The notes under the pieces were generated by a model. The model saw only the letters and a list, made by a program, of their open reading frames with translations, had not been told where the DNA came from and ran no database searches. From Paraphysoderma sedebokerense (Eukaryota; Blastocladiomycota; Physodermatomycetes; Physodermatales; Physodermataceae): a stretch of DNA of 64,000 bases. Of this stretch, positions 7,129 through 48,795 are shown in pieces (position 1 is the first letter of the stretch; every line of letters starts with the position of its first letter). Made by a program: the position numbers and the translations under genes. Location of the stretch: NCBI GenBank assembly GCA_025602915.1, contig JAHLJZ010000092.1:1-64000 (forward strand), read 5' to 3'.

Positions 7129-8538
7129 TTAATTCTCCTTGATCCCAAGTCCAACGGAACAATCAACAGGTCTAAACTCCATATGAATAATCCCGTCATT
7201 CAAATTGGCAATAGATCGGAATGCGTCTCTATTTAAATCCATATGATTTAAACTGCGGCTACTTTCGCCACACGGGTTTTCATTTCCTTTGCCTTTATTG
7301 ATGGGGTGAATATTTGGGCATGCTATCGACAGCAAGAATCAACGGTCAGTCATCATTTCTTTCAGAGAGTGCCGGAATAATGAAGAGATAACGAACCATC
7401 AGCGACGGTAATCACCACACTTTTGTTGGGTGCGTAGCAACTACTCTTGTCGTTTGTATTCCCTTGATCGTACCACATGAATTTAGAAACACACCGAACC
7501 TCAAAACACTTGCCACAGGACCCTTGATTTTCACACAACGGCATACCACCGTACGGATTATCTCTACATTGAGGACCATCGTAAATAGGAGAAAGGTCAC
7601 TGATAGCTGCGAAAAAAGCGGTATTGGGGTACCCGCCGCGGCAGGCGAGTTGGCTATGGTCTGTCGCGGATTCGTGTAAAGCAGGGTAAAAGGATGCTGT
7701 AGCAAAGAAGAAAATGAGTGTTAGATTTTTGTTATGCAATAAAGAGAGTCGTCAAGGTGGGTTTCGTACCTCGTCCTTTGGTGAATCCACCGCTGCCGCG
7801 GGTACTATTGCCGTAGCTTCCGCCATTTTGACCTCCATTTTGACCACCATTTTGGCCACCGTTCTGCCCTCCATTTTGGCCACCATTCTGCCCTCCATTC
7901 TGACCACCGTTCTGACCTCCATTGTTTTGGCCGGCGATAAGACATGATTGTCCATTCTCAAACCCAAATTTACGACCATCTCGACCCGTTTCAGTGACTT
8001 GATCATTTTGACAAATCGGAAAGTTTTCACCGGGATATCGATTGACATTTCCTCGATTATTATTCGAGCCGTTTCCTCCACCTTGACTGCCTTGATCCCC
8101 AGCGATTAAACAACTTTGACCATTTTCGTACCCAAATTTCCTACCATCCCGACCAGTCTCTCTGACTACCCCGTTTTGACAAGTTGGAAAGTTTTCTCCG
8201 GCATACCGGTTCACGTTTTCCCGACCAGCGGTTGAGCGACTGGGATTGTTGGAATAAGAGTTTGCTCCTCCTTGACTACCTGAACCTTCAGCGATTAAAC
8301 AACTCTGACCGTTTTCGTATCCGAATTTTCGACCGTCCGTACCAATCGCCGTGACCTGGTTAGAACTGCAAGTCGGATAATTCTCCCCCGGATACCGAGT
8401 CACCCTCGCAGACATGTCACCGCCATAACTACCTTCCTCGACCCCATAATACTGAGCCGGTGAAGTCTCCACCACCGGATAATGAAGTTGAAACCAAGCA
8501 ACCGATAATAAAAGTACCGATAATTTCGAGCTAAACAT
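7129..8538 (-). CDS. expansin-like secreted protein with three CBM10/dockerin-like repeats
   Basis: Three exons (8538-7770, 7696-7397, 7322-7129) close in phase to 420 residues. A signal peptide (about residues 1-25) leads into three repeats of the form YPGENFPTC...DGRKFG(Y/F)ENGQSCLI, near residues 48-82, 112-145 and 164-197. These resemble CBM10, the family that includes dockerins of anaerobic fungi. A Gly/Gln/Asn linker with about nine GGQN units follows, then a cysteine-rich double-psi beta-barrel of the expansin/RlpA type (ACRGGYPNTAF, CGKCFEVRCV, SSCYAPNKSVVITVADG, and a C-terminal MDLNRDAF ... CSVG). Expansin-like proteins loosen cellulose or chitin networks without hydrolysis; the target here is unknown. 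There is no C-terminal expansin CBM63 domain. It has a paralogue at 15.9-14.7 kb. Confidence 0.8.
7780..7925 (-). repeat. GGQN-coding tandem repeat in the expansin linker
   Basis: A 12-bp unit coding Gly-Gly-Gln-Asn is repeated about nine times inside exon 1 of the expansin-like gene. It forms the flexible linker between the binding modules and the barrel, and its length is likely to vary between strains. Confidence 0.8.
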
Positions 8539-10140: not shown

Positions 10141-10572
10141 TTAGTTTTCGTCATTGTCGAAAGAAGCAGCACCGTTTACGTTTGGAAACTTTGGAAAATC
10201 ATTGAAATTTGGAAATCCTTTGGGGATTCTGGGAAAATTTGGTGGCCCGTTTGGAGTTCCGGAAAATTCTGGTGCATTTGGAAATCCTGGAAAGTCTGGA
10301 ATGTTTGGTGCAGCGCCGCCAGACGAAGCACATGAAGATGAGGTGGATCCTCCGAGACGCACGGTGAAACATCCATTTCCATCATCTGTCACGGTTGGTG
10401 TACCTTCACCACAAACGGTACTGGTTGATGAACCGCCACCAGAATTCAAAGTTACTTTAAAGCACCCGTTTCCAAGAGATTCGATTTGAGGGCGACCGGA
10501 TCCGTTTTGGGGGAGGGCGGAAATGGTGGAAACCAAGGCAAGCAGGGCGAAGATTACGATTTTGTTGAACAT
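10141..10572 (-). CDS. family A small secreted protein, Pro/Phe-rich tail
   Basis: An intronless gene of 143 residues. A signal peptide ends near ISA-LPQ. The conserved core follows: GNGCFKVTL ... VCGEGTPTVTDDGNGCFTVRLGGS ... C, four cysteines in two similar half-repeats. The tail (from about residue 88) is built on short FP/PxFP units and ends acidic. The family is not one I know. The core looks like a small disulfide-bonded beta module, and the variable tail suggests an extracellular or surface role. The nearest relatives are the genes at 12.1 and 13.8 kb. A TATA-like ATAAAAAG lies about 105 bp upstream. Confidence 0.75.
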   Translation of the reverse strand: MFNKIVIFALLALVSTISALPQNGSGRPQIESLGNGCFKVTLNSGGGSSTSTVCGEGTPTVTDDGNGCFTVRLGGSTSSSCASSGGAAPNIPDFPGFPNAPEFSGTPNGPPNFPRIPKGFPNFNDFPKFPNVNGAASFDNDEN

Positions 10573-11723
10573 CTTAGAGGACTATCTATAGTAGAATTTA
10601 AATGTAGAGAAGGGTAAATTTTGTGTGCTACTTAAAAGTTGTCTGTATAATAGTGTAAAGAATGAAGAATACTGCGCTTTTTATGTTGCCAGCTAGCAGA
10701 ATACGAACAATCACCGGCCACAGCACATTCAACTCAGACACGTTAACGTTCATTATCAATCTAGCCTAAAATTGACACTGCAGCCTGATTGTGAAGAAAC
10801 GGTAAAATTATTATGACAAACAATCTAGTAGTTGCCCCAATATCTAAATTTGGCTGTTGAAACTGATTTTGTTGTTGAAATTAATGCACAGCGCTGGAGC
10901 GAATACCGCCCACTGATTGTTCCCTCGTTGCGATGCTTAAAACATCTTCAGCGTGTGGTAGAAAACAATCGCCGGCTGAATTGAGGCAAATTCGAGAACC
11001 AATTCTATCATGAATTCAATATCGGTAATATTCATTACTGTGATGTGCTTCGGCACTTCGCATTGCATTACATTAAAGCAAATCACTATCGTGATGAATA
11101 TTACCCAAGAGGAAGTAGATTGTTATTGAGCTTGTTACTATTTATAGGTTTAACGTCGAAGACAAACATTTCAGTGACATGTTATGACGGAATCCTGGAA
11201 ATAAACAGAAGTAGTTAGATTAGTTTCGCTTAACGGTTCTGATTGGATCCATGGAAATGAGCAATTCGGTGATGGAGTCCATTAAGCAAAGACAATTGAA
11301 TGAACTCTATACAATTCGTGGTAATACAGCGTTAAGAGCTGTCAAAACTTTGCAAAATGGAATATCAATTCCCACGGACCACCGGATTTCGGACCAAATC
11401 AGGGAACGGTTCGAATTCCGAAACCGACAATCAGACCATCCGTGTCAACCATAATGCCGTCCGAATTTCGGACCTCGGATCGGACGGCCAGAACACTTCC
11501 ATAATTAAATTCATGTAGTGCTTTACCATACAGATTAATTTGTATACAAGCTGTATGTATCAACATTTATTTCATTCCCCACTCAAGACTTACTTACAGA
11601 TTACTATCTCTCAGGTTATTATTACATTCTTAGATCAAAAGTTTTGTTAAAAAGATTTATATGCCTATTTCTGAGATTCCTTGCAAATATTGATAAATAT
11701 TGTTAACGACATCATTTCCCTAC
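10573..11723. other. family A intergenic unit
   Basis: The 5' flank of the 10.1-kb gene, then the 3' flank of the 11.7-kb gene. A block near 10676-10760 (TATA-like box, GCCAGCTAGCA, CACCGGCCACAGCACAT) recurs upstream of the next two members, showing that promoter and gene were duplicated together. A 67-codon plus-strand ORF at 11251-11454 lies here and is not supported as a gene. Confidence 0.55.
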
Positions 11724-12062
11724 TTAGTTTTCACCGCGGTTGAGTCCAGGGAAACCATTAAAATTAGGGAATCCGGGAAAGTCTGGAAAGTTTGGGGGTG
11801 CAGCGCCGCCAGATGAAGCACATGAAGATGAAGTGGATCCTCCGAGACGAACGGTGAAACATCCATTTCCATCGTCAGTCACGGTAGGTGTACCGTCTCC
11901 ACAAATGGTACTGCTTGATGAACTACCGCCAGATCTCGAAGTGACTTCATAGCATCCGTTTCCGAGAGATTTAATTTGAGGGCGACCGGATCCGTCTTGG
12001 GGGAGGGCGGAAATGGTGGAAACCAAGGCAAGGAGGGCAAAGATAACGATTTTGTTGAACAT
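11724..12062 (-). CDS. family A small secreted protein, short form
   Basis: 112 residues, no intron. The signal peptide and core are nearly identical to those of the 10.1-kb member (SLGNGCYEVT ... DDGNGCFTVRLGGSTSS, four cysteines). The tail is reduced to about 20 residues of FP-containing sequence, showing that the tail, not the core, is the part that changes length. A TATA-like box lies near 12163. Confidence 0.75.
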   Translation of the reverse strand: MFNKIVIFALLALVSTISALPQDGSGRPQIKSLGNGCYEVTSRSGGSSSSSTICGDGTPTVTDDGNGCFTVRLGGSTSSSCASSGGAAPPNFPDFPGFPNFNGFPGLNRGEN

Positions 12063-13317
12063 CTTAGGAAGTGTTATAGTGGATTTTAAATGTGGAGAAG
12101 ATTAGTTGTGTATTTCCTTGAAAGGTGTATGGGGAATGATGTAAAGATTGAAGAAGAAGGCGCTTTTTATCTTGCCAGCTAGCAAAATAAGAACAGTCAC
12201 CAGCCACAGCACATGCAACTCGGATGCGTGATAAACATTACCAATCTTGCCTAAATCCGACATTGAGCCTAAATGGGAAGAAAGAGTGAAATTATTATGA
12301 CAAACAATCTATTTGCTGCCTCAATAACTGATTTTGACTGTTGTAGCTGATTTTTGGTGTTGAATTTAATGCACCGCGCTTGAGCGATAATTATTCCCTA
12401 ATTGCGCTTTTACAATACAACATCTCTAACGTGCGGTAGAAACAATGGCAAAACATTGTGGCAATTTGAGAGCCACATCTTTCATTCAAAAAATTTCATA
12501 CTTACTATCAATTCAATATCGGTACATTAAGTGTTGTCATGTGTTTCGCGCTGCATTACATTGAAGCAATTCACTATCGTGATCAATATTACCAAAGATA
12601 AAGTATATTTGAGGGAGCTACTATTTTTAGGATCAACGTTGAGGGTATTGATTACAGTCAATATTATGACTTGATGTTGTGAGTGAAATATCCGTGATTT
12701 GTTTAACCCACCGACGCGTTTTGGAAGGAAAAATTAAGGTAGTTTTTTTGGCAGAGTTTTGATGCTATTCTCTACAAACAAAACATATGACATTTCTCAA
12801 TAGAAAATTTCCTATCTCTATGTATAGGAAGACGGCATCCGATCTCGCTATTGTACATAGTATATAAGGAAGGCAGGGGATGATACTATTACCATTATAA
12901 CACCAAAGCTAACCTACTTATTTGATCATACTATTGATCTTTAGAAGTTGTAAGAAGTTTTAACTAAGTTGGTCAATCGACTCGGAAGTGCTTCCGATTT
13001 ACGAAGTACGATTATGAAGTCACTGTAACCGGGTCAGTGACCATCTAACCAAACAATTAGTGAACAACTCAATCAGTATTACATCAGGGTGGAGCTTCAT
13101 TCCGTTTTCCACCATTATGAAATTTGATTAAACACGTGAAACTTCAAAATAGCGTCGGCATTCCTATGACACCAACTGATCAATTGTGGTGACCGAATAT
13201 TGATCGTTTATTATATCAATATGTTACAATCATATATCAATAACTATCATACATAGAGACGTTTCAGATGCGCAATGATCGACAACAATATCATTAAGAG
13301 CCGTGATCATTAACAAT
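12063..13317. other. family A intergenic unit
   Basis: Contains the duplicated promoter block (about 12155-12240) matching those before the 10.1- and 13.3-kb genes. Further out the sequence is AT-rich with no ORF or element I can support. The region near 13200-13290 matches the 3' flank of the 10.1-kb gene. Confidence 0.5.
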
Positions 13318-13779
13318 TTAGTTTTTATCACTGTCGAAATCAGCGACACCATCTAAATCTGGAAACTTTGGGGAGTCATTAAATGGAAATCCAGCAAAGT
13401 CTGGTACAGTGCTTGGAGTTCTAGGAAACTTTGGTGGTGCCTTTGGAGTTCCAGGAAATTTTTGTGGCGCTTTTGGACTTTTAGGGAATTTTGGTGCAGC
13501 GCCTGGAAAATCTGGTGCAGGGCTGCCAGATGAAGCACATTGAGATGAAGTGGACCCCCCAAGACGCACGGTGAAACATCCATTTCCATCGTCAGTCACG
13601 GTAGGTGTTCCTTCACCACAAACGTTAGTGGTTGATGTACTGCCACCGGAATTCAAAGTTACTTTATAGCACCCGTTTCCGAGAGATTCGATTTGAGGGC
13701 GAGCGGATCCGTTTTGGGGGAGGGCGGAAATGGTGGAAACCAAGGCAAGGAGGGCAAAGATAGCGATTTTGTTAAACAT
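13318..13779 (-). CDS. family A small secreted protein, Lys/Pro-rich tail
   Basis: 153 residues, no intron. The signal peptide is near identical to those of the two neighbours. The core has SLGNGCYKVTL, NVCGEGTPTV and DDGNGCFTVRLGGS with four cysteines. The tail, from about residue 88, is a KFP/KAP/TP repeat followed by an acidic end. It is the third copy of a tandem array with units of about 1.6 kb. No catalytic motif is visible. Confidence 0.75.
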   Translation of the reverse strand: MFNKIAIFALLALVSTISALPQNGSARPQIESLGNGCYKVTLNSGGSTSTTNVCGEGTPTVTDDGNGCFTVRLGGSTSSQCASSGSPAPDFPGAAPKFPKSPKAPQKFPGTPKAPPKFPRTPSTVPDFAGFPFNDSPKFPDLDGVADFDSDKN

Positions 13780-14717
13780 TTTGGGTAGTGATAAAGTAGA
13801 ACTTTGGTATACAGAATAAATGTCAATTTCGGTTCTTCCTAGAGAGTGGGATATTAATCTTGAAGAAGGAACAGCTGCCTTTTATGGTGGTGGCCAGCAG
13901 AACAAGAATAATCACCGGCCACAGCAAATGCAAGCAGACAAGTTAACAGACATGACAAATCTAGTCTAATTTTGACTTTGGAACCTAATTGAGAAGAAAC
14001 ATCAAAATTATCATGACAAATAGTCTATTAGCTGCCTCGATTACAGAATTTGGCAAATGTAGCTGATTTTTGGTGTTGAATCATTGCATAACGTGGAAGT
14101 CAGTAACGCCAATTGATTGTTGCCTAATTGCGACGCTTAGAATACAGAACCATCAACGAGCGGTAGAAAAAATTGCAAATTGAGTATTGGCACATATCAG
14201 CCACTTTTTTTCAGTTAGACAATTTTACAGAGGAATGAATTCAATATTGGTATTATTAAACGCCGTCATAGGCTTCGCATGGCTTTACATTGAAAAGCTG
14301 AAGCAAGTCAGTATCGTAACCAATATGGAGCATATTTGAAAGTGATATTTATAGATTTAACGTTGAGAGCATTTCCTACAGTCAATTAGTATTAGTAATC
14401 GTGGAAATGGAAAACTAGAAGTAACTGAGTTTGGGAATTCCGAGGAAACACTTGGATTTGCTGGCAAAAAAATTCATCGCAGGAGATGTTTATCAAAGCA
14501 TGTACACAAGGGTGAGGCAACTTAATATCGTTATATGAATATGTTACACTATTTAAACAAAGTTAACTTATAATAAATGAGGTAATATTACTAAGAAATA
14601 TTAACAGGGTAAGTATTGTGTATATTTACAAGTTAATTTACGCCATCGAAAGCAGAATACAAATTCTTGGAGTTCAATCTTAGCATTTCTGACTACAGCA
14701 CCCGCTTGTTGAATGTC
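13780..14717. other. intergenic, array edge
   Basis: Holds the third copy of the family A promoter block (TATA-like CATAAAAGG near 13880, then a CACCGGCCACAGCA motif) and the 3' flank of the second expansin-like gene. No further gene is seen. Confidence 0.5.
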
Positions 14718-15881
14718 TCAATATTCTTTAATCCCAACCCCAACCGAACAATCAACCGGTTTGAACTCCATATGAATGATTCCATCACCCACATTTGCAA
14801 TGGATCTGAATGCGTCGACATTTAAATCAAAATGATTCAGGCCGCGACTTGTTTCTCCACATGGATTTTGGTTACCTTTATCGGTATTAATCTTGTGATT
14901 GTGAGGACAAGCTATGAGTAAAAAGCAATCAGTTTAATAATTTAGCACGTAATTCACACTAAAATAAAATATATTGTTATACCATCTGCAATTTTGACGA
15001 CGACAGATTTGTTTGGAGCATAACAACTACTTTTATCGTTTTTGTTGCGCTGATCATACCTACAGTCGGTAATATATGTTATAGTTAGAATAGAGCTTCA
15101 TTGCCAATCGAAATTTGCAATGTAGGAAATGGAAAAACCACGCACCACATAAACTTTGAAACACAGCGAATTTCATAGCAGCTCCCGCAAGACAACTGAT
15201 TTTCGCATAGCGGAGCGTGAGAGGAATCATATGGGTTGGGAATACATGCTGGGCCCTTATACTCAGGAGACAAATCACTTATCGCACCAAAAAATGCCGT
15301 TCCGGGATATCCACCTCGACAAGAAAGATTGTTGTAATCTGTCGCAGGCTCACCGGGACCGGGATAAAAGGAAGCTATCGTAGATCCGTATTAATAAAAA
15401 ACCGAAAATTTGAAATCAAAATTTAGCCGTTACCTCGTCCTGATGTAAAACCTCCAGTAGTGACGTTACTTCTTCCTCCTCCATTGGATGGAGGCTGACC
15501 GCCTTTGGTACTCCCACCCGATTGAATCAAGCAAGTTTGACCATTTTCATATCCGAATTGTCGCCCATCAGTACCAGTCTGCGTAGGGACATTACTCTGA
15601 CAAGTAGGGAACGTTTCACCGGGAAAGCGCGTCCCAGCATCCTGCTTTGCAGTTGATTGCCTGCTCTCTTCGATCAGGCATGATTGTCCGTTTTCCCACC
15701 CAAATTTTCGTCCATCGGTGCCAGTCCTTGTAACAACATTTGTTGCACAAGTTGGAAAAGTTTCTCCGGCATATCGTGCACTGCCGGTAGGATTGTAGTA
15801 ACCCTGGGGCGAACTGTTAACGAGGTAGGAGCAGTGTAGCGAAACAAAACTCAAAATAATAAGAAATAATTTAACAGCCAT
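14718..15881 (-). CDS. expansin-like secreted protein with two CBM10-like repeats
   Basis: Four exons (15881-15434, 15374-15146, 15059-14983, 14911-14718) close in phase to about 315 residues. A signal peptide starts at the second ATG of the frame, chosen because it gives a standard signal peptide (MAVKLFLIILSFVSLHC). Two CBM10/dockerin-like repeats follow (YAGETFPTC and FPGETFPTC types), a short Gly-rich linker, then the double-psi beta-barrel domain with LSCRGGYPGTAFF, CGSCYEIRCVSKFMW and SSCYAPNKSVVVKIADG. Compared with the 8.5-kb paralogue it has one repeat fewer, lacks the GGQN linker, and carries one additional intron inside the barrel between the W and Y of FMW-YDQ. The other splice sites are conserved. 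TATATAAAT lies about 60 bp upstream. Confidence 0.8.
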
Positions 15882-17342
15882 TACTGAAGAATAATATGTC
15901 AAAATAAATTATTTCAATGCTGGGTACCGTCCGGTGATTTATATATCCTGTACGTTCAGTACAAGTTTCTTTAAGCTCCTTGGAAACCACCAGAACGACA
16001 ATAGACTTCATTATCAACATTCAACGCGCTGAATTTGCTTTTCACAAATCTTGCTAATTGAATGCGTCGGTCACCTAGCTAAAAGCGTTGCGGGGGGCTG
16101 ATGAAATCATTCGCATTAATTACTTTTCCATTCATTTCGAGTGATGATGGAATAGTTCTAAATAAACTTAAGCAGTATTTTGATAGATTTATGAAATGCT
16201 TATAACAGCATCTGATAATCATGTCGGAAAATCAATTATGCCGAATTTCAATTAAGTTGCGTGGTAACTGAACCTGCAGAAGCCAAACAGCATCTCACAT
16301 GACCTGCTTTAATTGTTTCATCTAATGTGGCAGTGTCACGAGTGCTATTATAAATAGTTTAACCGTTAACGTAAAGCAGCTGTAATTGGAAATAATTAAC
16401 ATTAGATGGATTTGCTAATTTGTAGATATTATCTTGCAGTCTTGCATAATCTTGGAACACTTTCCCGAAAGGCGTACGGCCGAGATATTATTTATAATCG
16501 TTCATCACCTTGACAGACTAGATCTTATTAGCTAACCATTTGTAGCGTAAACATTTTCTTCAGCGCCTCTCCGTCCATCGTACCATAACCTTAATCTTTC
16601 AAACTGCAGGAATCGGTGTTGTCGCAGATGATTGGAAAGTTGAATAGCTTAAAAAGGAGCGGAAGTCTTACCAAACACCTGCTATCACCTTCGGCCACAC
16701 TAGTCTCTACATCTTCATCCACAATTAATTCATTATATAAGCAAATGTAAATAAATTGTACAGAGTAGCCCGCATTAGCGAATTTGCCATGTGCAAGAAT
16801 GATGCGTATTCCACATCTTTCAAGCCTTATTACTGATGTCTGGGGAGTATTAACAAACATTCGGAAAACGCACAAAATCGGTTTACAGTATTAGGTGTTC
16901 CCATCCATATGCTTCACCAGCCTTCGCACAATAAAAAACGAAACCAAACTTCCATTCTATTGTTTAATATTGGAGGGATTCCGTGTTGATTTACAATGTA
17001 TTGGTGACTGTCTTTATAACCTATCATTGGCATAAATTCCGACTTTCGGAGACCGAATAACTGGCAAAGCATACCAGGATGAATGCTGGGACAATGGTGT
17101 AACATCCAGAAAAAATTGAGTCAAACTGTATTAATAGTTGGGTAGGAACAATTATATTTGACAAATTCAATATTTGAAAATACAAATTGTACTATCGTAA
17201 GGGAGCTTATTTATTCGCCAACAGCTGTACAGTTGATTCTTGCGCATCTGAGGATAATTTACATATTCATAGATATATTTTACAATTTGAGACAACCGAG
17301 CCAGCTGGTTGCCGATAGAGATTTTCAAATGTAGCCGCTTGC
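15882..17342. other. intergenic, no supported gene
   Basis: An AT-rich spacer between the second expansin-like gene and the interrupted family A copy. The ORFs at 16875-16591 and 17105-16914 have no recognisable features. Nothing repetitive was noticed. Confidence 0.45.
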
Positions 17343-18077
17343 CTACTTCCGTGAACGCCGGATTTTCTTTGACATACCGTAGGTTCCACCCTCTGGTACA
17401 TCCGGTTTCTTCGGTGTTTTGTTGTCGGATATTTCCATGTTGGGGATATCAATATTCGGAATGTCAATTTTTGGCATTTCAATCTTTGGCATCTCGATGT
17501 TCGGCATTTCAAATTTTGGGATATCAATTTTAGGAATATCAATTTTTGGCATTTCGATCTTGGGCAATGCAAATTTTGGAACGTCTGCATTGGGGATTTC
17601 GGGTCTCTTTGGATAATTCGGCGTTCCTGGTGTTCCTTCTTTCCCATCACAATCAGACTGATCGCCAGAACCGGCATCAGGTTTCCCAGGTTTAGTATCA
17701 TCACCAGTTCCGGGTTGACCATTATCACCTTTTCCAGGCTGGCCATTTTTACCATCTTGGCCGGGCTGTCCGATCTGGCCATTGGATCCATTGTTGACGT
17801 CCAATCCACCGCCGCTAGATCCACATGATGAAGCATGGGATCCGCCTAAAGTCACAGCATAACACCCATTTCCTTTATCGGTCACTTGTGGTTCCCCTTG
17901 ACCGCATACCACATTTTTGGAAGAATACCCATCCGAACTGAAACTGACTTCGTAGCATCCGTTTCCGGTGGGTTTGATTTGTGGTTTACCCCCTGAGCCT
18001 GATCCGTTTTGAGGAAGTGCGAAGCCATTGCCGGCGAAAGCGAGGAGAACGAAAATTTATTTTTTGGTTGTTGACAT
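17343..18077 (-). pseudogene. family A member with an in-frame stop in the signal peptide
   Basis: An open frame with a family A core (GKPQIKPTGNGCYEVSF ... VCGQGEPQVTDKGNGCYAVTLGGS, four cysteines), a GQPGxDGxxGQPG collagen-like spacer and a tail with five-residue periodicity (PK-I-D/E-I/M) ending in basic RSRK. It is the closest paralogue of the 19.0-kb gene. The expected start at 18077 is followed by TAA at codon 7 (18059-18057), replacing what looks like Lys in the n-region of the signal peptide. The first ATG after the stop in this frame (17912) lies inside the core and would lose both the signal peptide and the first cysteine. The rest of the frame is intact, so this is a very recent pseudogene, a read-through case or a base-call error. 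Confidence 0.65.
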
Positions 18078-19016
18078 GATTGTGAGAGTATGCAAATTGT
18101 TGTAAGAAAAGAAAGAAATATCTTAGTTTCTGAGCTACAAAAGGATTTTCATTCGTTTTTATACTGCTCTACGAGTACCTATTAATAGCTTGAGTGTTCG
18201 CTTTGGTGCCAATAAGCTGGTTCATACAATTTTGCTGACGACTTAACTCCACTGCTGATAATACGCCTGTAAGTTTGAATAGCGCTGAGCCACTATTCAT
18301 CGCAACGGTATGTGCATTGATCATGAGAGAAATTGCTTGATATACTTAAACTTTGAATTTACAGTAGATACTGAAGCGCACTAATTGTTTTTCTTCGGAC
18401 TAATAGAAAATTCTGCTTTGCAAACCGTTGCACACCGCAATTTGTCAAATGATTACCATAGCGACTTGCTAATATGGTGGAAGTCCCAGCCATACAATAA
18501 TAGGGATTTGTGTTAAGAGAAATCGATTCATTATTCCATAATGGGAGTTAACACACTGGCAGCCAGCTAATTCAACGCATTCTGAACTTTGAGGTCCGAT
18601 GTATTCGCTGTGGAAGTAAGAAAACTGTTCATGAATTTATCCTGTGATGTCACTTGCGTTCATCTCGGTCTCGTTATAATAGGAAGTGCAGTTGTGTCAT
18701 GACATTCTAGATTTATTCCACTAATATTAACAGAGCAGGAACAATTGATTTGATATATGAAGACTACTGGAATCTCTTTTTCAGAATGAAAAAAAAATAG
18801 GCGTAAATATTTCACAACCACTTGCTTCTCTTCACACAACACCATTACGTTATAACGTGGAAAATGTATAGATGGTTAACTAAAAACGCGAATTTATTCA
18901 ACGGTTCATTTTCTTTGTATTTACAAGTAATAAAAACGGTACAATTAATTATCTTTGGAAAACGTATTAATTGACTGACCAGGTATTCGAATTGCAATAG
19001 TTCAGAATACGAAAAT
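18078..19016. other. intergenic between family A members
   Basis: A TATAAAAA-like box near 18157 belongs to the interrupted copy. The remainder is AT-rich with no supported ORF. Confidence 0.45.
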
Positions 19017-19844
19017 TTAGATTCTAGAACGGCGAAATCTTCGAACTTTACCTGGCTTAGAGGAGTTGGGCATATCGGGCATGGCAGGCATATCAAATTT
19101 TGGTATATCGATTTTGGGCATCGGGGGCATAGGTGGCATAGGTGGCATAGGTGGCATAGGTGGCATAGGTGGCATGTTCGGCATATTGGGCATACCCGGC
19201 ATATTGGGCATACCCGGCATATTGGGCATACCTGGCATGTTGGGGAATTTTGGCATGTTCGGGAAATTCGGCATGCCAGCACCACCTCCAGGCATGTTAG
19301 GGAAATTTGGCTTTTTCGGAATATTTGGCATTTTTGGGATAGTTGGCATTCCCGGAGGATTGGGGGCTCCGTCACCAGTACCACCTCCAGGCGGTTTTGG
19401 AGTTTCGTCACCGTTTCCAGGCGGTTTGGGCGACTCGGATCCACCATCTTGGCCTGGTGGACCGTCAGAGCCATTTTGACCACCATCAGATCCGGGTCGT
19501 CCACCAGGCTGACCGTTGCTACCGTCTTGACCATTCGGACGGTCGGCTCCATTGTTTACATCCAACCCCCCGCCCCCACTAGAACCACATGATGAAGCCT
19601 GGGATCCGCCTAAAGTCACAGAGTAGCATCCGTTTCCTTTATCGGTCACTTGAGGTTCCCCTTGACCACACACAATATTCTTAGAAGAGTAACCATCCGA
19701 ACTGAAACTAACTTCGTAGCATCCATTTCCGGTGGGTTTAATTTGTGGTTTACCCCCTGAGCCTGATCCGCCTTGAGGTAATGCAGTGGCAGTGGTAGAT
19801 ATAAAAGCGATGATTGCAAGCGCCAATGGTTTTGTCATAAACAT
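19017..19844 (-). CDS. family A secreted protein with collagen-like spacer and Met-Pro repeat tail
   Basis: 275 residues, no intron, the longest intact member of the minus-strand array. Signal peptide to about residue 22, then the core (KPTGNGCYEVSFSS ... IVCGQGEPQVTDKGNGCYSVTLGGS, four cysteines). A Gly/Pro/Asp/Asn-rich spacer follows (about 95-165), then a Met/Pro tail made of PNMPGM and PPM units (about 170-250), with a strongly basic terminus (KVRRFRRSRI). The tail probably adopts an extended polyproline-like structure; the basic end could bind acidic wall polymers. Both are inference. TATAAAAG lies near 19910. Confidence 0.75.
   Translation of the reverse strand: MFMTKPLALAIIAFISTTATALPQGGSGSGGKPQIKPTGNGCYEVSFSSDGYSSKNIVCGQGEPQVTDKGNGCYSVTLGGSQASSCGSSGGGGLDVNNGADRPNGQDGSNGQPGGRPGSDGGQNGSDGPPGQDGGSESPKPPGNGDETPKPPGGGTGDGAPNPPGMPTIPKMPNIPKKPNFPNMPGGGAGMPNFPNMPKFPNMPGMPNMPGMPNMPGMPNMPNMPPMPPMPPMPPMPPMPPMPKIDIPKFDMPAMPDMPNSSKPGKVRRFRRSRI
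19095..19345 (-). repeat. Met-Pro coding minisatellite
   Basis: Short tandem units of 9 and 18 bp (GGCATAGGTGGCATAGGT and GGCATACCCGGCATATTG types on the plus strand) code the PPM and PNMPGM runs of the family A protein. Such arrays change copy number easily, explaining why tails differ in length between paralogues. Confidence 0.8.
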
Positions 19845-21121
19845 ATTGAAATGGTCAAGTATTGTGATGTAATTGAAATAGCCTACTCAAGGAAGATTCT
19901 CTTTCCCTTTTATACCTGGAACTTCTGTACTAGGAGTATCTTTGTCAGGCATCAATCTATTTTAGATCATCAGCATGCACTCCTCATTTAATTAGTTTAT
20001 TCGAACATTAGCTATCGGTCTCTATAATGCCAAGTTTTTACAATGTCTTCACCCGCAAGTCCGAGTTTAGAACTCACTCTAAAAACAATTAACGCGCCAC
20101 TTCAACCTTGGGAAGTATTGTGATTGGAAGATTAAGACTGCCGGTTAAACCGGACACCGAAAGGAGAGTATTGCCTCGGAAGTTGGAGCTCAACTCCAGC
20201 ATATCTTTATTTTTAAAAGTAAGCAACATTTGTCACCTTATTTTCCCGTGAAAGCGGACACAGGTTAAGTGGTTGTTGAAATTTTGTTTGTTACTCCGCC
20301 ACCGGCCAAATTATCAAAATGGTGCTTATAACTATTATTGGACTGTGCACTTCATTTGTACAAATTAATGCTATTTTGCTGATAATAGTGAAGGCTCAAA
20401 AGATTGTGGCATGCACCAGGGCATATGCTTACCGGGATATATACAATAATACAACATGAACTTAATATACAAGACGATGTCACTCCACTGCCATCGCCAG
20501 ATCGGTCGTAATCGACGCAATATTCTAAATATTCGCCAAAACGCAGAAGGAGCATGCAAATTTGCAATTTCTTCGAGCTCGAAAAAGAATTTGCTGCTAG
20601 TTGCCTTAGATGATGCAAACATTCACCGTTGTGCTTGCATTTATGCTCTCCGTGAACATTATGGAGAAGAACTAATAATCAATGGGGTCGGAAACCTCAT
20701 TTTTCAGTACTACTTCAATTAAATTATTATCTAGAACCGGGAACGGATAATTCCAGGCTGTTATGTAAGTTCTTCTCTGTATAAGATCTGGAGAGCCACC
20801 AGAAAGAACGTCGCACTTACGGTGTGAATTGTGATAAATCCGCAGACGCAAACCAAAATCAAAATATATTTCAAAGAAATAGTATATGGCAATATATCTT
20901 AGATTTATGTTTAATTTTACTTTAGTTCAGGTTGAAATCACAATCTATCATGTTGCGGAAGGACAGAAATATTTAATTGATAATATGGTACATAAATTGC
21001 TATTTACAGGCCATTTTAATTATGCAACAGACGAACAGACTGATATTTGAAGTAATGGATTTATATGCCGATATATACGAGTGGGTTTCGAACTAATTGA
21101 ACATGTTGCAAAGTGATGAGG
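19845..21121. other. intergenic, no supported gene
   Basis: AT-rich spacer. An 89-codon plus-strand ORF at 20456-20722 and opposite ORFs over the same stretch have no signal peptide or recognisable motif. Nothing else was seen. Confidence 0.4.
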
Positions 21122-21586
21122 TTATGAAAAGGGGAGAATGTGAAATAAACGCGGAACTACCTGATTTAAGTTGCCACAATTACTACTACCGCCGCCAGTA
21201 CACTGTACAACTGCCACGACTCCGGGAATCTGACCAAGCGCACCTTCTTTGTCATCTTGTTTTTCTGCATCTGTGCCTCCGGTTTCATTAACACCAAGTC
21301 CGATATGCCCTTTCAACTCCCGGCCTAAACCAGCACTCCTGTCCAAGCAAACAGCGGAAGTATAATTGGCAGAGTCGTGGCACCCATTTCCGTTATTCTT
21401 CGGTTCAGGTTGACCATCTCCACACACGGTACTGTTAAACGATTTACTACTGTTAAAAAGTAAAACATCGACGCATTCGGCTTCGACGGTTTTGGTCTGT
21501 GGTTTTCCGTATGGAATTGCTCGAATTGAAGAAGAATAGAGGAGAATGATGAGAGCGAATGCAAATGGATACCATACACACGTCAT
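21122..21586 (-). CDS. diverged family A secreted protein
   Basis: 154 residues starting from the second ATG of the frame, which gives a proper signal peptide (TCVWYPFAFALIILLYSSS). The core is degenerate but still shows a VCGDGQPEPKNNGNGC-type segment, with additional cysteines towards the C-terminus. The tail lacks the Pro/Gly repeats of other members. An unannotated intron could shorten the C-terminus. Membership rests on the short motif and on its place in the array. Confidence 0.55.
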   Translation of the reverse strand: MTCVWYPFAFALIILLYSSSIRAIPYGKPQTKTVEAECVDVLLFNSSKSFNSTVCGDGQPEPKNNGNGCHDSANYTSAVCLDRSAGLGRELKGHIGLGVNETGGTDAEKQDDKEGALGQIPGVVAVVQCTGGGSSNCGNLNQVVPRLFHILPFS

Positions 21587-22775
21587 ATTGAGATGGTGCA
21601 GCGGCAACACTTAAATAGATGGAAACGGCATTCCTCTTCTTTATCTCTGCTTTTACGGTCTTCGACACTCATACTCTTCTCGTGCGCTCACACGGCTCAT
21701 TCAATGTCTATTGAACTTAGCTTCTTACTGTGCATATAGCATACATGTACTCGAAAGGGTATCTACTTAATATCTGACGACTGGTTACACCGGAGCCAGA
21801 CAGTATGGTTACGTGATGTTCGGAGATTTCGTACCTAATACTCTCAGATGTTATTTCTGGAATTAAGTTGCTGTTGTATTCCCCTTTGCCGCATCTGATG
21901 AAGAATCTGTGACCAGCTGTTTGTCGTTAAAATTTGCGAAGATTGTATCGTCAGCGGTGCTTCAGCACAACCTTTGCATCCATTTTTTCCGAACGGCTTG
22001 TTATGATTGTGCGGTCAGCTGGAAAAATTATGTGGAGCTAAAATCAGAAGAAGGATTGCTACACAGTGTACTCACTACTCCCTGTTATATGAATATCTGA
22101 GAGGAAGCACATTAGCTGAAATTTTAAGTTCAGACTGTATCCCCGTTTGAATGGAATTGTAGAGCTCCTCATAACCCTACAAGTTCAAAGATGGGCACAA
22201 TGATACAGCGCCATCGGTGGTTTGATTGAGGCAATCTCTTTTCTGACGAAGGCCCTACAGATAATATTGATTGACAGTAAAGTTATAAAACATTTTATTC
22301 TTTGTGTTCTTCAATTTGTATCATTGATAAAAAGTGAATGAGAGAATAATAACTGTCGATTTCTGAAGGTTAGTCCTACAGCATAAGAAGAGATAGATTC
22401 CAAGGGAAACGATATGCGAGAATTTCTTGAAATTTCCATCCACGGTGAGGCGCCTTTCATTTACACCGATTGTCTTTTCAATCCATTCAATTCCACTTTG
22501 TTGATTCTTATCCTAAAACGACAACATTCTCCAATTTCCACCACAGCAACTGTTATTCTATCTCTCTCGACATCTCCTGTTCCAGCTGTCTATATTTCAG
22601 TTTTCGGCCTTCAAACTCTCGGCATCTTAAACTCCACCAAATCACAGGAAACCTCGAATCTAAACGCTTCCTCCCCAACGTTCACAGATAACGAGACTTA
22701 AATATAACAAATACTACTCCCACAGCCAACTCAAATCAACAAATAGATTTTAACGAAAACAGAACTGCGGAAATA
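21587..22775. other. intergenic, divergent promoter region
   Basis: Lies between the diverged family A gene (minus) and PRP38 (plus), so it should hold both promoters. A 95-codon plus-strand ORF at 22414-22701 overlaps the likely PRP38 5' leader and looks like chance. Confidence 0.45.
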
Positions 22776-24463
22776 ATGTCAGAAAAGACTTCAAATAAGC
22801 TAGAAACTTGGGGAAATGAGAAAACCATGAACTTGAATTTGATTTTGCATCAGAACATCCTTAATTCAGGCTACTTTAAACAGTTATAGTACGTTTATTG
22901 GTTCTTTCTTTGTTAATTTTCTCATACTTCCCTATTCTGCTGCTTTTATTTGTTCTGGGCTTGGTCCCCGCACTGGAATACTTCTCCTTCATGTGAGTTT
23001 ATGATGATGGCTGTGAACATCGGTTGGAATAGGGTTGACTGACTGATATTTATGTTTATTTTTCTGAAATAGCGAAAAAAAAACATATCATCAAATTATT
23101 GATGAGATTTATTACCACGGTAAGTTGAACTTATCTGTCCCACTGTTTCACCTTTCCTAGTTCTGTGTAGATGCTTATAGCTAACCAGCACCACCATCAC
23201 TTCTTTCCTTTATATTTCTTGTCCTTGAATCAATTTACCTCATTTGCCCCTCTTACGTCACTGTTTGAACACTTTTTTTCTTCATGTCGATAGTTGACAA
23301 CTTAAGTACGTATTTCTAGAAGTTTTTCTTAAAGGGTTGAATCAACTAAATTTCATGTCAGACTGAGTTCAGTCCCTCATGTTGCTCCTTTCCGAGAGAC
23401 AACTTTTCAACATACGAGAATGAGGGAGTGAGACACTGGAATCATGTAATTCTTTTGCTCTTCACTTATGTTGATTTATTCATTTCAGATTGTTTGATTC
23501 TTCCATGTCCCACTCCTGCGTGGCTGTTGATATCTAACACTGACTTTCTCCTCTTCCCCGCTTATCTTTTGTTGTGTTCCTTCTTGTGCCGCTTGTTCCC
23601 CTCCAGGTCCGTTTCTAAAAGGCACTGTAGCTTCGAGTTGTTTTTGTTTACTCTACAAACTTTGGACTATTAGGTTAACGGTGAAGCAGATTTACGGGTT
23701 ACTCGACCATACCGATTCTCCGTATGTTCTATTTATATTTTTTGATTCCTATAATTGATACTTCGTCAATTAATTGTTTCCGCGCAATACAGACACATTC
23801 GGGCGGTCGGTTTACTCTATCTCCGGTACGTTTGTAAACCTGCTGATCTGTGGTCTTGGTTTGAACCGTACCTGGACGATCCGGAGGAGATTCAAGTCAC
23901 GGGGGGTGCAAATCCTAGGTATTCTACAATTGGAGAGGTCGGCCGAGATCTCTTGACCGTGGAGAAATGGGAAGGTTTGTTTTTGCGACAATTCATTCAA
24001 TATATGATTCAGATCAGGTTTTCATAAAATTCTCCTTGATTGAAACATAGGAACACAATTGCCCCGAATTCCCGTACCGATTGCGCGAGATATTGAAGCT
24101 AAATTGCAAGAGCGATATCCGCAAAGGTCCGGTAGAGGTGGAAGAGGAGGGAGAGGCGGTGGCGGTGGGTATCGAGGGGGTAGCAGGAATAGTAACGAAG
24201 GTTACGGTGATCGTAGGGGAGGTAGGGGAAGTGGCGGTGGGGGCGGATATGGCGGCTACGGGTAAGTAAAGGAATTGGTTGATAAAATCTGTCTTAATAG
24301 CGGTAGTGTTTCTTGGAAGTTCAATCGTTAACCCTGTGTGCTTATACATAGATCGAAACCTTATGATCGGCCTTACTCTTCGAAATCAAGTTCAGGACCA
24401 GGATCGTACGGGAAAGGTGGTAGAGGTGGCAGTGGTTCCTATAAAGGTGGAAGGGAATGGTAA
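22776..24463 (+). CDS. PRP38: pre-mRNA-splicing factor PRP38 (PRP38B-like)
   Basis: Confident exons are 22776-22888, 23073-23119, 23607-23721, 23793-23974, 24051-24261 and 24352-24463. At least one small exon between 23120 and 23606 is unresolved; it probably codes an HVAPF-type segment near 23370, equivalent to HVEPW of the family. Family signatures seen in order are ETWGNEKTMNLNLILHQNIL, TYHQIIDEIYYH, SSCFCLLYKL, LTVKQIYGLLDHTDSP, IRAVGLLYLRYV, DLWSWFEPYLDD, TIGEVGRDLL and LPRIPVPIARDIE. PRP38 joins the spliceosome with the tri-snRNP and is needed for activation. The C-terminus is an RGG/GGY-rich tail, not the long RS domain of animal PRP38B. It is the only housekeeping gene within the secreted-protein region. 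Confidence 0.88.
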
Positions 24464-24968
24464 AAGTAAAAGGTGGCCATTGGGTTATTTGATGGTGTGC
24501 AAGGAGTATTGACGGCAAGATAAGTTATAGGGATGAATGAATACAAAATCATTGCTTCAAAGAAATGGTCGACCGTTACTGAAAGAGCAGAACCCATCCG
24601 TGCATAATTCATTATTTTATTCTATTGTATTGTATTTCTAAAGCGATAAAAATGATCACAGTAATTACAGAAACGGAAGGATTGTCCTTAATTGCGGATA
24701 TATTAGAGTCAGCAGCCTGTTTGTTTACAATATCATACGTCCAGATGTTGGAGATAATTTAATTTCGCAGCAAATCTATTAATATCTATTCAATCACTTG
24801 GACAATTACAATAGTAATATCCTATCTACAACGATGTATCAATTATTGAGTTTTACAATTAACAATATCAGTACAACTTCAAAAAGGATGAGATGGAGTT
24901 ACATCATCCATGAACGACACAATGTCGGAATTTCAGCGGGCTGATATGGGTTTCGAATTGTATGTGTG
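24464..24968. other. convergent intergenic spacer
   Basis: Holds the 3' ends of PRP38 and of the 25-kb family A gene. AT-rich; no other feature seen. Confidence 0.45.
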
Positions 24969-25274
24969 TTAAGCGTTAGCACCACCAGTACGATTGCGGG
25001 GAGCATCAGATGTTTGTTGGCCCCTTTCACATACAGTATTCGAACTGGCACCAATGGTAATATTGAAACAACCATTTCCGATCCTCCTCACTACTAGTTG
25101 CCCATTTCCGCACATGCGGCGGCCAGTATTCTGTTTAACGTCGCCAATCATGTAGCAGTCGTCTCCTAAGGGCTCAATGTTTGCAGGACTTAATCTCATT
25201 GGAGAAGGGTTTGCGCTAGCGGTGCTATAGAACACAGTGAGAACGGCAAGTACTAATGCTTTTGTCATGAACAT
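24969..25274 (-). CDS. short diverged family A secreted protein
   Basis: 101 residues. The signal peptide (MFMTKALVLAVLTVFYSTASA) closely matches that of the 19.0-kb member. The core keeps LGDDCYMI, MCGNGQLVV and IGNGCFNITIG plus a fourth cysteine, so the four-Cys pattern is preserved while most other residues differ. The tail is about 15 residues and has no repeats. Confidence 0.65.
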   Translation of the reverse strand: MFMTKALVLAVLTVFYSTASANPSPMRLSPANIEPLGDDCYMIGDVKQNTGRRMCGNGQLVVRRIGNGCFNITIGASSNTVCERGQQTSDAPRNRTGGANA

Positions 25275-26142
25275 GTTGTATAGTGGGTGTGATTAATCAA
25301 TACAAGGAATAGAAAGGTCGATAAAAGAAACAACGGATCTAATCAGTTTTATAGACAAAAAAAAGCAATTACCCGCTCCTTTTCTTCCTCATCGGATAAA
25401 CGTACAGATTGATAAATTAATCTTGTCAACTAAATTAAAGCTTATCCACTTTTTTTTTCCATGACTAGCAGTGCGGCTCGTTCAAACCCGATTTATTTTC
25501 AAGTTCGCGCCACAATTCAGATATATATAGAGCTCGCTCAACTGGGGCTTATGAGATTAAATGCAACATTCGGTTAAATTTCAACGACTCTTTTCGGCTG
25601 AACACTTCATAATTTAGCTCTAATGTAGGTTGAAATTTATCCGGGCCCCGTATTTGCGAATTGATGCAAGTACCAGTGCACATATGAAGTAATTTTGCTT
25701 AATTCAATATCTCACCAATTTTATCTGATAGCTTGCGTTGATCGGCCCTTGACGGGGTCCTTAAAGAACTAACTGGTTTTTTAAAGTTATCTCAATTGTT
25801 ATGTTTTTGGTTAGGATTTGTATCTTGTGTCAATCGTACCAGGGAATGCAAATCCAACATTGTGATTTGATTACTCTATATTGCCCCTAGCAAACAATAT
25901 ATATATTGACAACAGTCTGAACAGAGTTCATTTTCGTTTCCTGATTGAGTTGTATGAGTGAGCATGATACAGAAAGATTGAAAAAATGTTTATTTCTATT
26001 CATAAAATGTGGGAAACACAGCAGCTATAGATTCATATCTACAGCGCATCTCTTATATTACCCCCCCTACTGGAAAAACTATCAATTGCAACCAAATTAA
26101 ACCTGCAGAGTTATATTAAAAGCTACTCTGGTAAACTATATT
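25275..26142. other. intergenic between two diverged family A genes
   Basis: AT-rich with no supported ORF, repeat or RNA gene. Confidence 0.4.
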
Positions 26143-26529
26143 TTATTTTCTGAAACGAGTTGAATTTCCCTCTATTACAGCAGAGGCCTTCTGGCCTCTA
26201 CTTGTTGGTCGAGGCGAAAATTCCCTTCGAGCCTGGCTTTTGGTAGGCACTGGTGCTCGCCCAATAGTTTCGTAATATGTCTGGTCACAAATATCAGGCA
26301 GCGAAGAATTACCAAGCGAGATATCGTAGCACCCTTTTCCCTTATCCATTACGACAAGTGGCTCGTCCCCGCACATGAGATTCCCGATACCAATCCTATA
26401 GCAATTACCTTGCGCCGGTGAGATGTTTGCGAAACTTAAAAAGCTCTGCTCTTGTGGGTGATGTATTGCGGTAACTGTGCTATATAATGTAGTAAGGGTG
26501 GCAAGTACTAATGGCGTTGTCATGAACAT
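26143..26529 (-). CDS. diverged family A secreted protein with basic tail
   Basis: 128 residues from the ATG at 26529, which gives a signal peptide like the 25.0-kb paralogue; an upstream in-frame ATG would add a second hydrophobic stretch. Core: GNCYRIGIGNLMCGDEPLVV then KGKGCYDISLG and a fourth Cys. The C-terminal 45 residues are basic with Ser/Thr. A TATA-like CATAAAAAGG lies near 26612. Confidence 0.65.
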   Translation of the reverse strand: MFMTTPLVLATLTTLYSTVTAIHHPQEQSFLSFANISPAQGNCYRIGIGNLMCGDEPLVVMDKGKGCYDISLGNSSLPDICDQTYYETIGRAPVPTKSQARREFSPRPTSRGQKASAVIEGNSTRFRK

Positions 26530-44313: not shown

Positions 44314-45093
44314 ATGTATACCAAATCTTTTGCTATCCTACTTATTGCTTTGGCCGTCTGCAACGTTACAGCACTCCCTCAAAACGGTTCAGGTAGTCCC
44401 AAGATCATGACTACCGGAGGAGGATGCTACTCGGTTAGTTTCGACGCCGGTGGAACAAACAACATAATCTGTGGAAATGGAGAGCCGAAAGTCTCCGACG
44501 AAGGAGGTTGTACTACAGTTACTATTCCTGGATCAACATCCAAAGCCAAAAATTGTGGTGGTTCGTTAGAAGTAAGCAATGGAGAGCCTGTGGCGATTGG
44601 TGGTGGTGGAGCACCCGGAAAGGACACTCAACCTGGTGCTGGCAGTGGTCAACCTGGAAAAGATGGTACCCCCGGCAAACCTAGTAAAGATGGACAACCC
44701 GGACCTGGAGACAGTCAGCCTAGTCCCGGTAAAGAAGGAAAGCCTGGATCTGGCGGCGGTCAACCTAACAAATGTGTCCCTACTGGCGGAGGTTCTCCTC
44801 CTGGTAAAGACGGTACTCCCGGCAATGGTGGAACCCCTGGCAACGACGGAAAACCCGGCAAAGATGGTGCTCCAGGAAAAGACGGTGCTCCAGGCAATGG
44901 TGGTGCTCCAGGTAAAGGTGCCGATCTTGGTAAAGATGGTAAAAACGGTACCAATGGTCAGCCTGGTAAGGTCGGTCAACCCGGATCTGGTGGTCAATCC
45001 AATAAAGGGGGTACACCTGGAAAAGATGGTAAACCCGGTTCTGATGGCAGCAGACCAGGTAAAGGTGGCAATCCTGGCAAAGGAGGCCAATAA
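44314..45093 (+). CDS. family A secreted protein with collagen-like Gly-X-Y tail
   Basis: 259 residues, no intron. The second in-frame ATG gives the signal peptide MYTKSFAILLIALAVCNVTA followed by LPQNGSGSPK, as in the minus-strand array. The core reads TTGGGCYSVSFDAGG ... ICGNGEPKVSDEGGCTTVTIPGS ... NC, keeping four cysteines. The tail (about residues 98-259) is rich in GKDGxPG and GxPGK triplets, a collagen-like pattern interrupted in several places and with one extra Cys (NKCVPTG). It lies 18 kb from, and opposite to, the main array. An extracellular fibrous or adhesive role is plausible but unproven. Confidence 0.75.
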   Translation: MYTKSFAILLIALAVCNVTALPQNGSGSPKIMTTGGGCYSVSFDAGGTNNIICGNGEPKVSDEGGCTTVTIPGSTSKAKNCGGSLEVSNGEPVAIGGGGAPGKDTQPGAGSGQPGKDGTPGKPSKDGQPGPGDSQPSPGKEGKPGSGGGQPNKCVPTGGGSPPGKDGTPGNGGTPGNDGKPGKDGAPGKDGAPGNGGAPGKGADLGKDGKNGTNGQPGKVGQPGSGGQSNKGGTPGKDGKPGSDGSRPGKGGNPGKGGQ

Positions 45094-48009: not shown

Positions 48010-48795
48010 TCACATCACACTAACATCAAAGTATAAGGCGGTACCGAGAAGTATCGATAGTAGCGTAATACTTGCAGCAGCAGTTTGTGAACCGCTTACT
48101 ATATCGTTTATTGCTACCCCCTCACTACTGGAAGCTTCGACATTAGAACTACTACTTGGTTGCTTGGCATTGTCAGGGGTGCCATCAGACTGACCAGCAG
48201 GAGGGTTTGCCACTTGGTCGTAGGTAGAAGCTTTTCCGCATAAGTGCGACACTTGACCTTCCTGGGCGGCAATTTCAGCAACCATATTGGGGCAGTTGTT
48301 GTAACAAACAGCAACTTCTCTAGCGTTGTGACAAAGACATTGATAATATCTCGCTTGGTCAGTGTTTTCAACCGGCTTACATGAAGTTTCCACGATATGA
48401 CTTGAGCGATCAAGACATGCATTGACAAGTTCCAAGGCACTGTATGTTTGTGGAGTGGATTGACTAGGCGGATCGTTACGGCCAGGTTGGCCGTTATTGC
48501 CGTTATTGCCGGGCTGGCCGTCGCTGCCAGGACTCTCAAGTTGCCCAGGATAAACAGTGTCTTCGTTTTGTACATATCTTGTTAGAATCAATTGAGGAAC
48601 TTGCCAATTACCTATGACGGTGGATTTTTAATATCGATGACACGAGCACTCAATTCAAGATAAATTATTTTTCTTACCGTGGGCACACATTCGAAAATCA
48701 GTTTGGTTGAGACATTGCTGATGACCGGAAACACAAGCGTTAGTTGAGCCAGAGAGGAGGGCGATAGCAAACAAACTGAGAAGAGTCGATTTCAT
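48010..48795 (-). CDS. family B GPI-anchored protein, two-module form with collagen-like spacer
   Basis: Two exons (48795-48678, 48611-48010) give 239 residues. Layout as in the 46.2-kb paralogue: signal peptide, N-module (CVSGHQQCLNQTDFRMCAHG-NWQ), spacer, core (NACLDRSSHIV ... YYQCLC ... CYNNCPNMVAE ... LCG), stalk and GPI-type terminal segment. Two differences stand out. The last Cys of the N-module is replaced (TRYVQNE where others have PRCVQNG), so one disulfide is probably lost, and the spacer has become a short GSDGQPGNNGNNGQPG collagen-like run similar to family A tails. A TATA-like box lies near 48868. Confidence 0.78.

What the first reader, a model, noticed from the sequence alone, without database searches (positions are those of the whole stretch)
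10141..26529. Tandem cluster of an unfamiliar secreted family with a fixed four-Cys core and ever-changing tails
Eight minus-strand members over 16 kb, plus one at 44.3 kb, share a signal peptide ending near LPQ and a two-half core built on GNGC ... VCGxGxPxVxDxGNGC ... LGGS ... C. The tails are completely different low-complexity types: FP, KFP/KAP, PK-I-D-I/M, PNMPG/PPM, basic, or none. Such a core-plus-hypervariable-tail array is what is expected of surface or host-facing proteins under rapid change. I know of no described family with this motif.
Basis: partly seen in the sequence, partly recalled or inferred. Interest (0 to 1): 0.8.

Follow-up and report, generated by a model that had tools for sequence, protein, structure and literature searches.

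The report
Algal parasite's stapled-hairpin secreted protein cluster
A parasite of green algae carries a tandem cluster of small, probably secreted proteins of an undescribed kind, each built on a short repeat that seems to be clamped by sulphur bridges, and at least twice pieces of such genes have been exchanged right where the secretion signal appears to end.

Summary
The array is real: eight minus-strand members (10141-26529) and one plus-strand member (44314-45093) are homologous. One has an in-frame stop; two or three are degenerate. The genome is Paraphysoderma sedebokerense (Blastocladiomycota, a parasite of Haematococcus); I examined eight more family loci on three contigs. Three protein-database searches named only this species, but their reach is limited. 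The core is a tandem pair (four units in five genes) of about 30-residue units. AlphaFold2 (moderate confidence) gives three strands per unit; by strand limits the two cysteines face each other in all six modelled units, so I infer a disulphide-stapled hairpin. No Pfam cut-off was reached in 16 proteins scanned; the nearest match is the bacterial 'collagen-flanked surface repeat' (24.9 bits, cut-off 27, one protein). Cores are under purifying selection; alignable tails show no positive selection; three tails are partly collagen-like. Best explanation: surface or wall-bound adhesive proteins diversified by duplication and module exchange. Function is inferred, not shown.

The parts
10141..10572 (-). 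GNGC-family member m10, FP-rich tail, open 143 aa
11724..12062 (-). GNGC-family member m11, shortened FP tail, open 112 aa
13318..13779 (-). GNGC-family member m13, KFP/KAP tail, open 153 aa; core (residues 21-92) modelled
17343..18077 (-). GNGC-family member m17, collagen-like run then P-K-I-D-I/M tail; in-frame TAA at 18057-18059 in the presumed signal peptide
17784..18020 (-). core tract of m17, 87% alike to the m19 tract 19545-19784, starting at the A-L-P-Q codons; upstream, signal peptide and downstream at shuffled baseline
19017..19844 (-). GNGC-family member m19, Gly/Pro collagen-like run then PNMPG/PPM tail, open 275 aa
21122..21586 (-). divergent member m21 (first GNGC lost, four core Cys kept, spacing 17-14-11)
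   Evidence: (E 2.9e-4)
24969..25274 (-). divergent member m25, short tail, open 101 aa (spacing 15-14-13)
26143..26529 (-). divergent member m26, basic tail, open 128 aa (spacing 10-14-14)
44314..45093 (+). GNGC-family member m44 with Gly-X-Y tail (13 consecutive triplets), open 259 aa (spacing 15-13-15)
7732..8538 (-). protein with 3 CBM_10 (PF02013) domains beside the array
   Evidence: E 1.5e-16, 61 bits
15423..15881 (-). protein with 2 CBM_10 (PF02013) domains inside the array
   Evidence: E 1.7e-8, 35.2 bits

Best explanation
The cluster encodes an apparently lineage-restricted family of secreted proteins of Paraphysoderma sedebokerense. The core is two (in five genes elsewhere four) tandem three-stranded units of about 30 residues. 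Each unit is a beta-hairpin whose open end is closed by one disulphide (cysteines 17 positions apart in the first unit, 13 in the second), set on a proline-rich or collagen-like stalk that varies from gene to gene. I propose that the core is the binding or packing head and the tail an extended spacer that keeps it in the wall or extracellular matrix of the swarmer, cyst or rhizoid, next to CBM_10 proteins, where it helps attachment to the algal wall. The family grows by tandem duplication; cores are kept alike by purifying selection and, in one pair, a conversion-like exchange; a new gene has arisen by recombination at the short shared sequence that encodes the end of the signal peptide (A-L-P-Q). 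Shown: homology, duplication, purifying selection on the core, cysteine spacing, the chimeric gene and its junction. Predicted: the hairpin fold and the register of the cysteines. Inferred: secretion (by eye), disulphides, surface location, adhesion.
For: Own-genome searches give the array plus loci on C27, C48 and C19. Core models: 6 strands for two units (pLDDT 70.1, pTM 0.52) and 12 for four units (pLDDT 69.4, pTM 0.40); in the strand-2/strand-3 hairpin of all six modelled units the two Cys are at paired positions, judged from strand limits, not coordinates. Core dN/dS 0.10-0.40 in six pairs. m10/m11/m13 are duplicated with their upstream DNA (71-77% in the longer pieces). m17/m19: core 87%, upstream 54% (shuffled 53%), signal peptide 53% (50%), downstream 53% (53%). 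C27 chimera: A/B 83% 5' of the junction and 52% 3'; B/C 53% and 76%; A/C 53% and 50%; all three share TCCTCAAT at the junction. A TATA-like box lies 70-113 bases before the ATG in 7 of 8 array members (no chance control run). CBM_10 neighbours. In print: swarmers attach to the outside of the host wall, and a sugar moiety of that wall was proposed as the binding molecule (PMC9123766, passages).
Confidence: 0.45

Rival explanations
1. Soluble secreted effectors that act on the alga: small, cysteine-bridged, lineage-restricted, tandem, with recombining parts, as in other pathogens' effector sets.
For: Size, signal-peptide-like N-terminus, cysteines, no named relative elsewhere, tandem array; reassortment at a fixed boundary as in oomycete CRN effectors (PMC3726527, passages).
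Against: Long repetitive Pro-rich or collagen-like tails fit a stalk or wall protein better than a diffusible effector. No positive selection seen in core or alignable tails; the one dN/dS above 1 (1.38, 14 signal-peptide codons of m17/m19) I take for unrelated sequence. Expression on infection unknown.
Confidence: 0.25
2. Structural proteins of the cyst or sporangium wall, cross-linked through Pro-rich tails, with no role at the host.
For: Proline up to 20% of residues (19017), Gly-X-Y runs, tails with repeat turnover; the organism forms resting cysts (PMC10537327, title and start of abstract in the listing).
Against: No localisation; some members have almost no tail (m25, the four-unit genes).
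Confidence: 0.2
3. The unit is a cysteine-bearing branch of the bacterial 'collagen-flanked surface repeat' (CFSR, PF19079), perhaps taken from bacteria together with collagen-like sequence.
For: P0006 matches PF19079 with E 2.4e-5, 24.9 bits, and the protein database's precomputed annotation of P0006 lists PF19079.6, besides PF06165.19; three window tails are partly Gly-X-Y.
Against: Below the cut-off of 27; only 1 of 16 family proteins scanned matches. P0006 has no match in phage or plasmid records. CFSR also gives 13.5-20.9 bits on phage repeats that I had picked by a GNGTYT-like motif (17 of 50 records), so the match may be to a common hairpin pattern. The own-genome search with PF19079 gave 0 matches, but it also missed P0006's own gene, so it says little.
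Confidence: 0.08
4. Decaying array: leftover tandem copies with little function.
For: In-frame stop in m17, degenerate m21 and m26, stop-bearing fragment on C48.
Against: Core dN/dS 0.10-0.40, including 0.10 for m17/m19; 16 of 17 examined genes are open; TATA-like boxes in 7 of 8.
Confidence: 0.05

Closest known systems
CFSR, collagen-flanked surface repeat (PF19079)
   Same: Short repeat unit around G-N-G-x-[FY]-x-V-T (30 residues of P0006 match); association with collagen-like sequence (for CFSR from the family's name only; here).
   Different: Below cut-off in 1 of 16 proteins, no match in the other 15; the fungal unit carries two cysteines at a mostly fixed spacing. I obtained no true CFSR sequences to compare.
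Terminal reassortment of bacterial type III effectors; recombination of oomycete Crinkler (CRN) genes at HVLVVVP
   Same: N-terminal and C-terminal parts exchanged at a fixed sequence boundary; new genes combine the N-terminal part of one gene with the C-terminal part of another (PMC3726527, passages).
   Different: Here the boundary is the presumed end of the signal peptide itself, the promoter travels with it, and the parts are small secreted proteins of a zoosporic fungus; only two events are shown.
CBM_10 proteins (PF02013, cellulose or protein binding domain)
   Same: Small tandem-domain proteins with signal-peptide-like N-termini in the same cluster.
   Different: No sequence relation to the GNGC core; CBM_10 was found in none of the 16 family proteins scanned.
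Collagen-like proteins (PF01391)
   Same: 13 consecutive Gly-X-Y triplets in the 44314 tail; shorter runs in 17343 and 19017.
   Different: Below cut-off (16 against 27.2 bits); most of each tail is not triplet-periodic.

Membership tests
CFSR (PF19079) | score over the curated cut-off of 27 bits | tested here: not met
   Best 24.9 bits, in 1 of 16 family proteins scanned. Against this: the precomputed annotation of P0006 lists PF19079.6.
CFSR (PF19079) | repeat flanked by collagen-like sequence | tested here: inconclusive
   Gly-X-Y runs of 13, 7 and 5 triplets in 3 of 14 genes tested; none in the gene whose protein matches CFSR.
Collagen-like (PF01391) | score over cut-off 27.2 bits | tested here: not met
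   16 bits in 44314, E 0.01, none in the other 15 family proteins scanned; the own-genome search gives one sub-threshold place, C104 (25.9 bits), and not 44314.
CBM_10 (for the neighbours 7732-8538 and 15423-15881 only) | score over cut-off 23 bits | tested here: met
   61.0 and 35.2 bits.
Genes made by terminal reassortment (a kind of event) | N-terminal part from one gene, C-terminal part from another, at a shared boundary | tested here: met
   C27 genes A, B, C: 83/52%, 53/76%, 53/50% 5'/3' of the junction. The m17/m19 core tract has the same 5' boundary but no known donor for its flanks.
Oomycete Crinkler effectors | FLAK and HVLVVVP motifs after the signal peptide | not tested
   Used as an analogy of mechanism only.
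Lectin or other solved fold | significant match of fold | tested here: inconclusive

The most novel reading that the evidence does not exclude
The codons at the signal-peptide end (A-L-P-Q) are a standing recombination joint in this genome: promoter-plus-signal modules and mature modules of unrelated secreted proteins are repeatedly recombined there, so that a new secreted protein gets a working promoter and export signal in one step. The stapled-hairpin core is one of several mature modules in circulation.
Probability: 0.2. Interest if true: 0.75.

Novelty: new variant of a known kind. Interest (0 to 1): 0.5.

Why it matters
The family would be a new secreted domain type in an early-branching fungus that destroys commercial algal cultures; my searches for papers on this organism, which are no full survey, pointed to no such protein. 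The C27 chimera is a clean case of gene birth by recombination at the end of a signal peptide in a zoosporic fungus. RNA-seq of four infection stages is already public (PMC10276916, passages), so expression can be tested at once.

Tried and rejected
Pfam, NCBIfam and PDB sequence searches: no Pfam cut-off reached in 16 family proteins; NCBIfam best E 0.017 among 11 members of alignment A2, one of them E 0.028 to a bacterial repeat-containing surface protein model; PDB best E 0.35 and 0.95.

Three protein-database searches named only P. sedebokerense (limits E 0.01, 1 and 10). Their reach is poor: searches scored only the 7991 candidates sharing most words, one search had 7 candidates, one search missed P0006 and P0007 that one search found, and one search found neither. 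So relatives in other fungi are not excluded.

Bacterial CFSR sequences for a profile comparison: a motif scan of genome contigs gave one locus, whose 1174-aa open frame I judged unrelated by eye; a motif scan of viral contigs gave 68 loci, 50 of which I searched with PF19079: 17 of 50 with matches at E <= 0.001, 0 of 50 over the cut-off. I dropped this line as uninformative. P0006 against plasmids and phages: no match.

Fold searches: nothing significant; top rows (SH2 and lipid-binding proteins; OspA and a bacterial lectin; laminin G modules) are taken as generic beta-sheet matches.

Promoter and signal-peptide modules of m17 and m19 as DNA queries were found only at themselves, so no donor was found; the module of C27 gene A was found twice, both on C27, and the Pro-rich protein of gene B only on C27 (its third match is the shared signal peptide). 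These go against a busy exchange.

Idea that the core is the unknown partner (cohesin) of CBM_10/dockerin domains: no evidence beyond proximity (PMC8262932, passages: the fungal cohesin remains elusive); kept out of the rivals. Telomere: no TTAGGG array of three or more in the window.

Literature: no paper with Paraphysoderma and cellulose-binding, none with the phrase collagen-flanked surface repeat, none with five terms on shuffling of fungal effectors, nothing pertinent in the 12 rows listed; passages of PMC8371127 gave nothing on this.

Limits of my counts: 17 genes were examined. The C19:108833-109045 match and the stop-bearing C48:127462-127596 fragment were not. In one search the automatic split into signal, core and tail failed for the C19 pair (its pieces give 0.22 and 0.07; left out of my range) and put the signal peptide of m25/m26 into its core (0.36; kept). 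Tail dS was saturated for m17/m19, m25/m26 and the C48 pair.
Full report
WHAT IS THERE. The window is bases 1-64000 of contig C92 of a 27.3-Mb genome in 195 contigs. Database names of homologues on contigs whose lengths equal those of C19 and C48 identify it as Paraphysoderma sedebokerense. Nine ORFs that look free of introns share a signal-peptide-like start, often ending A-L-P-Q, and a core of two halves. The halves are themselves repeats, P-x-[VI]-x-x-x-G-N-G-C-[FY]-x-V ... [VI]-C: one gene on C48 and four on C19 have four units in a row. Cysteine spacing is 17-14/17-13 in 18 of 22 two-unit domains of the 17 genes examined. One window member (17343-18077) has an in-frame stop; 21122, 24969 and 26143 are divergent.

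ORTHODOX SEARCHES. In hmmscan no Pfam cut-off is reached by any of 16 family proteins. NCBIfam gives at best E 0.017 for the 11 members of alignment A2. The one lead is PF19079, collagen-flanked surface repeat, in the four-unit protein P0006: E 2.4e-5, 24.9 bits against a cut-off of 27; the database's precomputed annotation of that protein does list PF19079.6, and PF06165.19. Its siblings do not match. The six-frame search of the genome with that family gives nothing, not even P0006's own gene, so that negative is weak. Three protein-database searches name only this species, but they miss known members too, so the restriction to this lineage is apparent, not proven. PDB by sequence: best E 0.35 and 0.95.

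FOLD. The two-unit core of 13318 is predicted as six strands (pLDDT 70.1, pTM 0.52), the four-unit P0006 as twelve (pLDDT 69.4, pTM 0.40). In the second hairpin of all six units the strand limits put the two cysteines of the unit at paired positions (17/34 and 48/61 in the core; 38/55, 72/85, 123/140, 157/170 in P0006). From this I infer one disulphide per unit, closing the open end of a hairpin; I did not measure distances. No solved fold matches significantly.

HOW IT EVOLVES. The three FP-tailed genes are tandem duplicates with their upstream DNA (71-77% in the longer pieces). Core dN/dS is 0.10 to 0.40 in six of seven pairs computed; the seventh (C19) was not split properly, its pieces giving 0.22 and 0.07. 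Tails of the FP group have dN/dS of 0.33 to 0.39; three further tail pairs are saturated. In m17/m19 the core is 87% alike (dS 0.38) while upstream, signal peptide and downstream are at the shuffled baseline and the tail is barely above it (55% against a mean of 51%, maximum 52%). Purifying selection alone would not hold synonymous sites at 0.38 if the flanks are saturated, and other family pairs do reach dS above 1, so I read the core tract as exchanged or converted. The tract begins at the A-L-P-Q codons. On C27 the same boundary separates two parents: gene B has the promoter and signal peptide of gene A (a GNGC gene; 83% over about 480 bases) and the mature part and 3' flank of gene C (a Pro-rich protein; 76% over about 450 bases), all other comparisons being at baseline, with the 8 bases TCCTCAAT shared by all three at the junction. 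The matches are far from identical, so an assembly error is an unlikely cause. Against a general engine: DNA searches with the m17 and m19 promoter/signal modules found only themselves, and the A module and the Pro-rich protein were found only on C27. So I can show two events, not a rate.

CONTEXT. Genes with three and two CBM_10 domains stand beside and within the array. CBM_10 places also lie on C127, C27 and C28. Seven of eight array members have a TATA-like box 70-113 bases before the ATG; three of these promoters are homologous, so there are fewer than seven independent cases, and no chance control was run.

FUNCTION. Swarmers attach to the outside of the host wall, and a sugar of that wall was proposed as the ligand in earlier work, as told in PMC9123766 (passages). 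A secreted, disulphide-stapled repeat head on a Pro-rich or collagen-like stalk, beside carbohydrate-binding-type proteins, fits a wall-bound adhesive protein; it also fits a cyst-wall protein or an effector. I rate the first highest but below even odds. Decisive data are public RNA-seq (PRJNA822859; PMC10276916, passages) and a core structure.

VERDICT. Real, unfamiliar, and partly better than reported: the chimera at the end of the signal peptide is the more surprising part. Kind: a new domain family, diversified by a known kind of recombination (terminal reassortment, CRN-like; PMC3726527, passages) at a new place.

Noticed in passing
L012 (G000:C27:166000-175999) 1671-2000, 3612-3950, 4872-5504, minus strand: Gene B (1671-2000) is a chimera of gene A (4872-5504: promoter and signal peptide) and gene C (3612-3950: mature part and 3' flank), joined at TCCTCAAT.
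   Followed up: yes
window 7732-8538 and 15423-15881, minus strand: CBM_10 proteins (3 and 2 domains) interleaved with the array; similar stretches lie downstream of both (7136-7326 / 14725-14915, 74%).
   Followed up: partly
window 46182-49770: Another tandem duplication (72-75% over up to 1.3 kb); within it an ORF at 49321-49833 with signal-peptide-like start, several Cys and a hydrophobic end (by eye), no Pfam match.
   Followed up: no
window 2975-4946: Tandem repeats of about 420 bases, up to 97% alike, holding near-identical ORFs of 111 aa.
   Followed up: no
L009 7119-8045 / L010 7569-8500 (C48): Duplicated GNGC gene, 95% DNA identity over 934 columns with identical protein; a stop-bearing fragment lies just before the second copy.
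   Followed up: partly
window 54400-55635, minus strand: Matches to BK/Slo-type potassium channel domains (PF22614, PF03493) in a zoosporic fungus.
   Followed up: no
window 35401-35988, plus strand: ORF with a Lys/Gln/Asp/Pro repeat (KKQDPKQQDPKQQ...), another low-complexity tail in the window.
   Followed up: no
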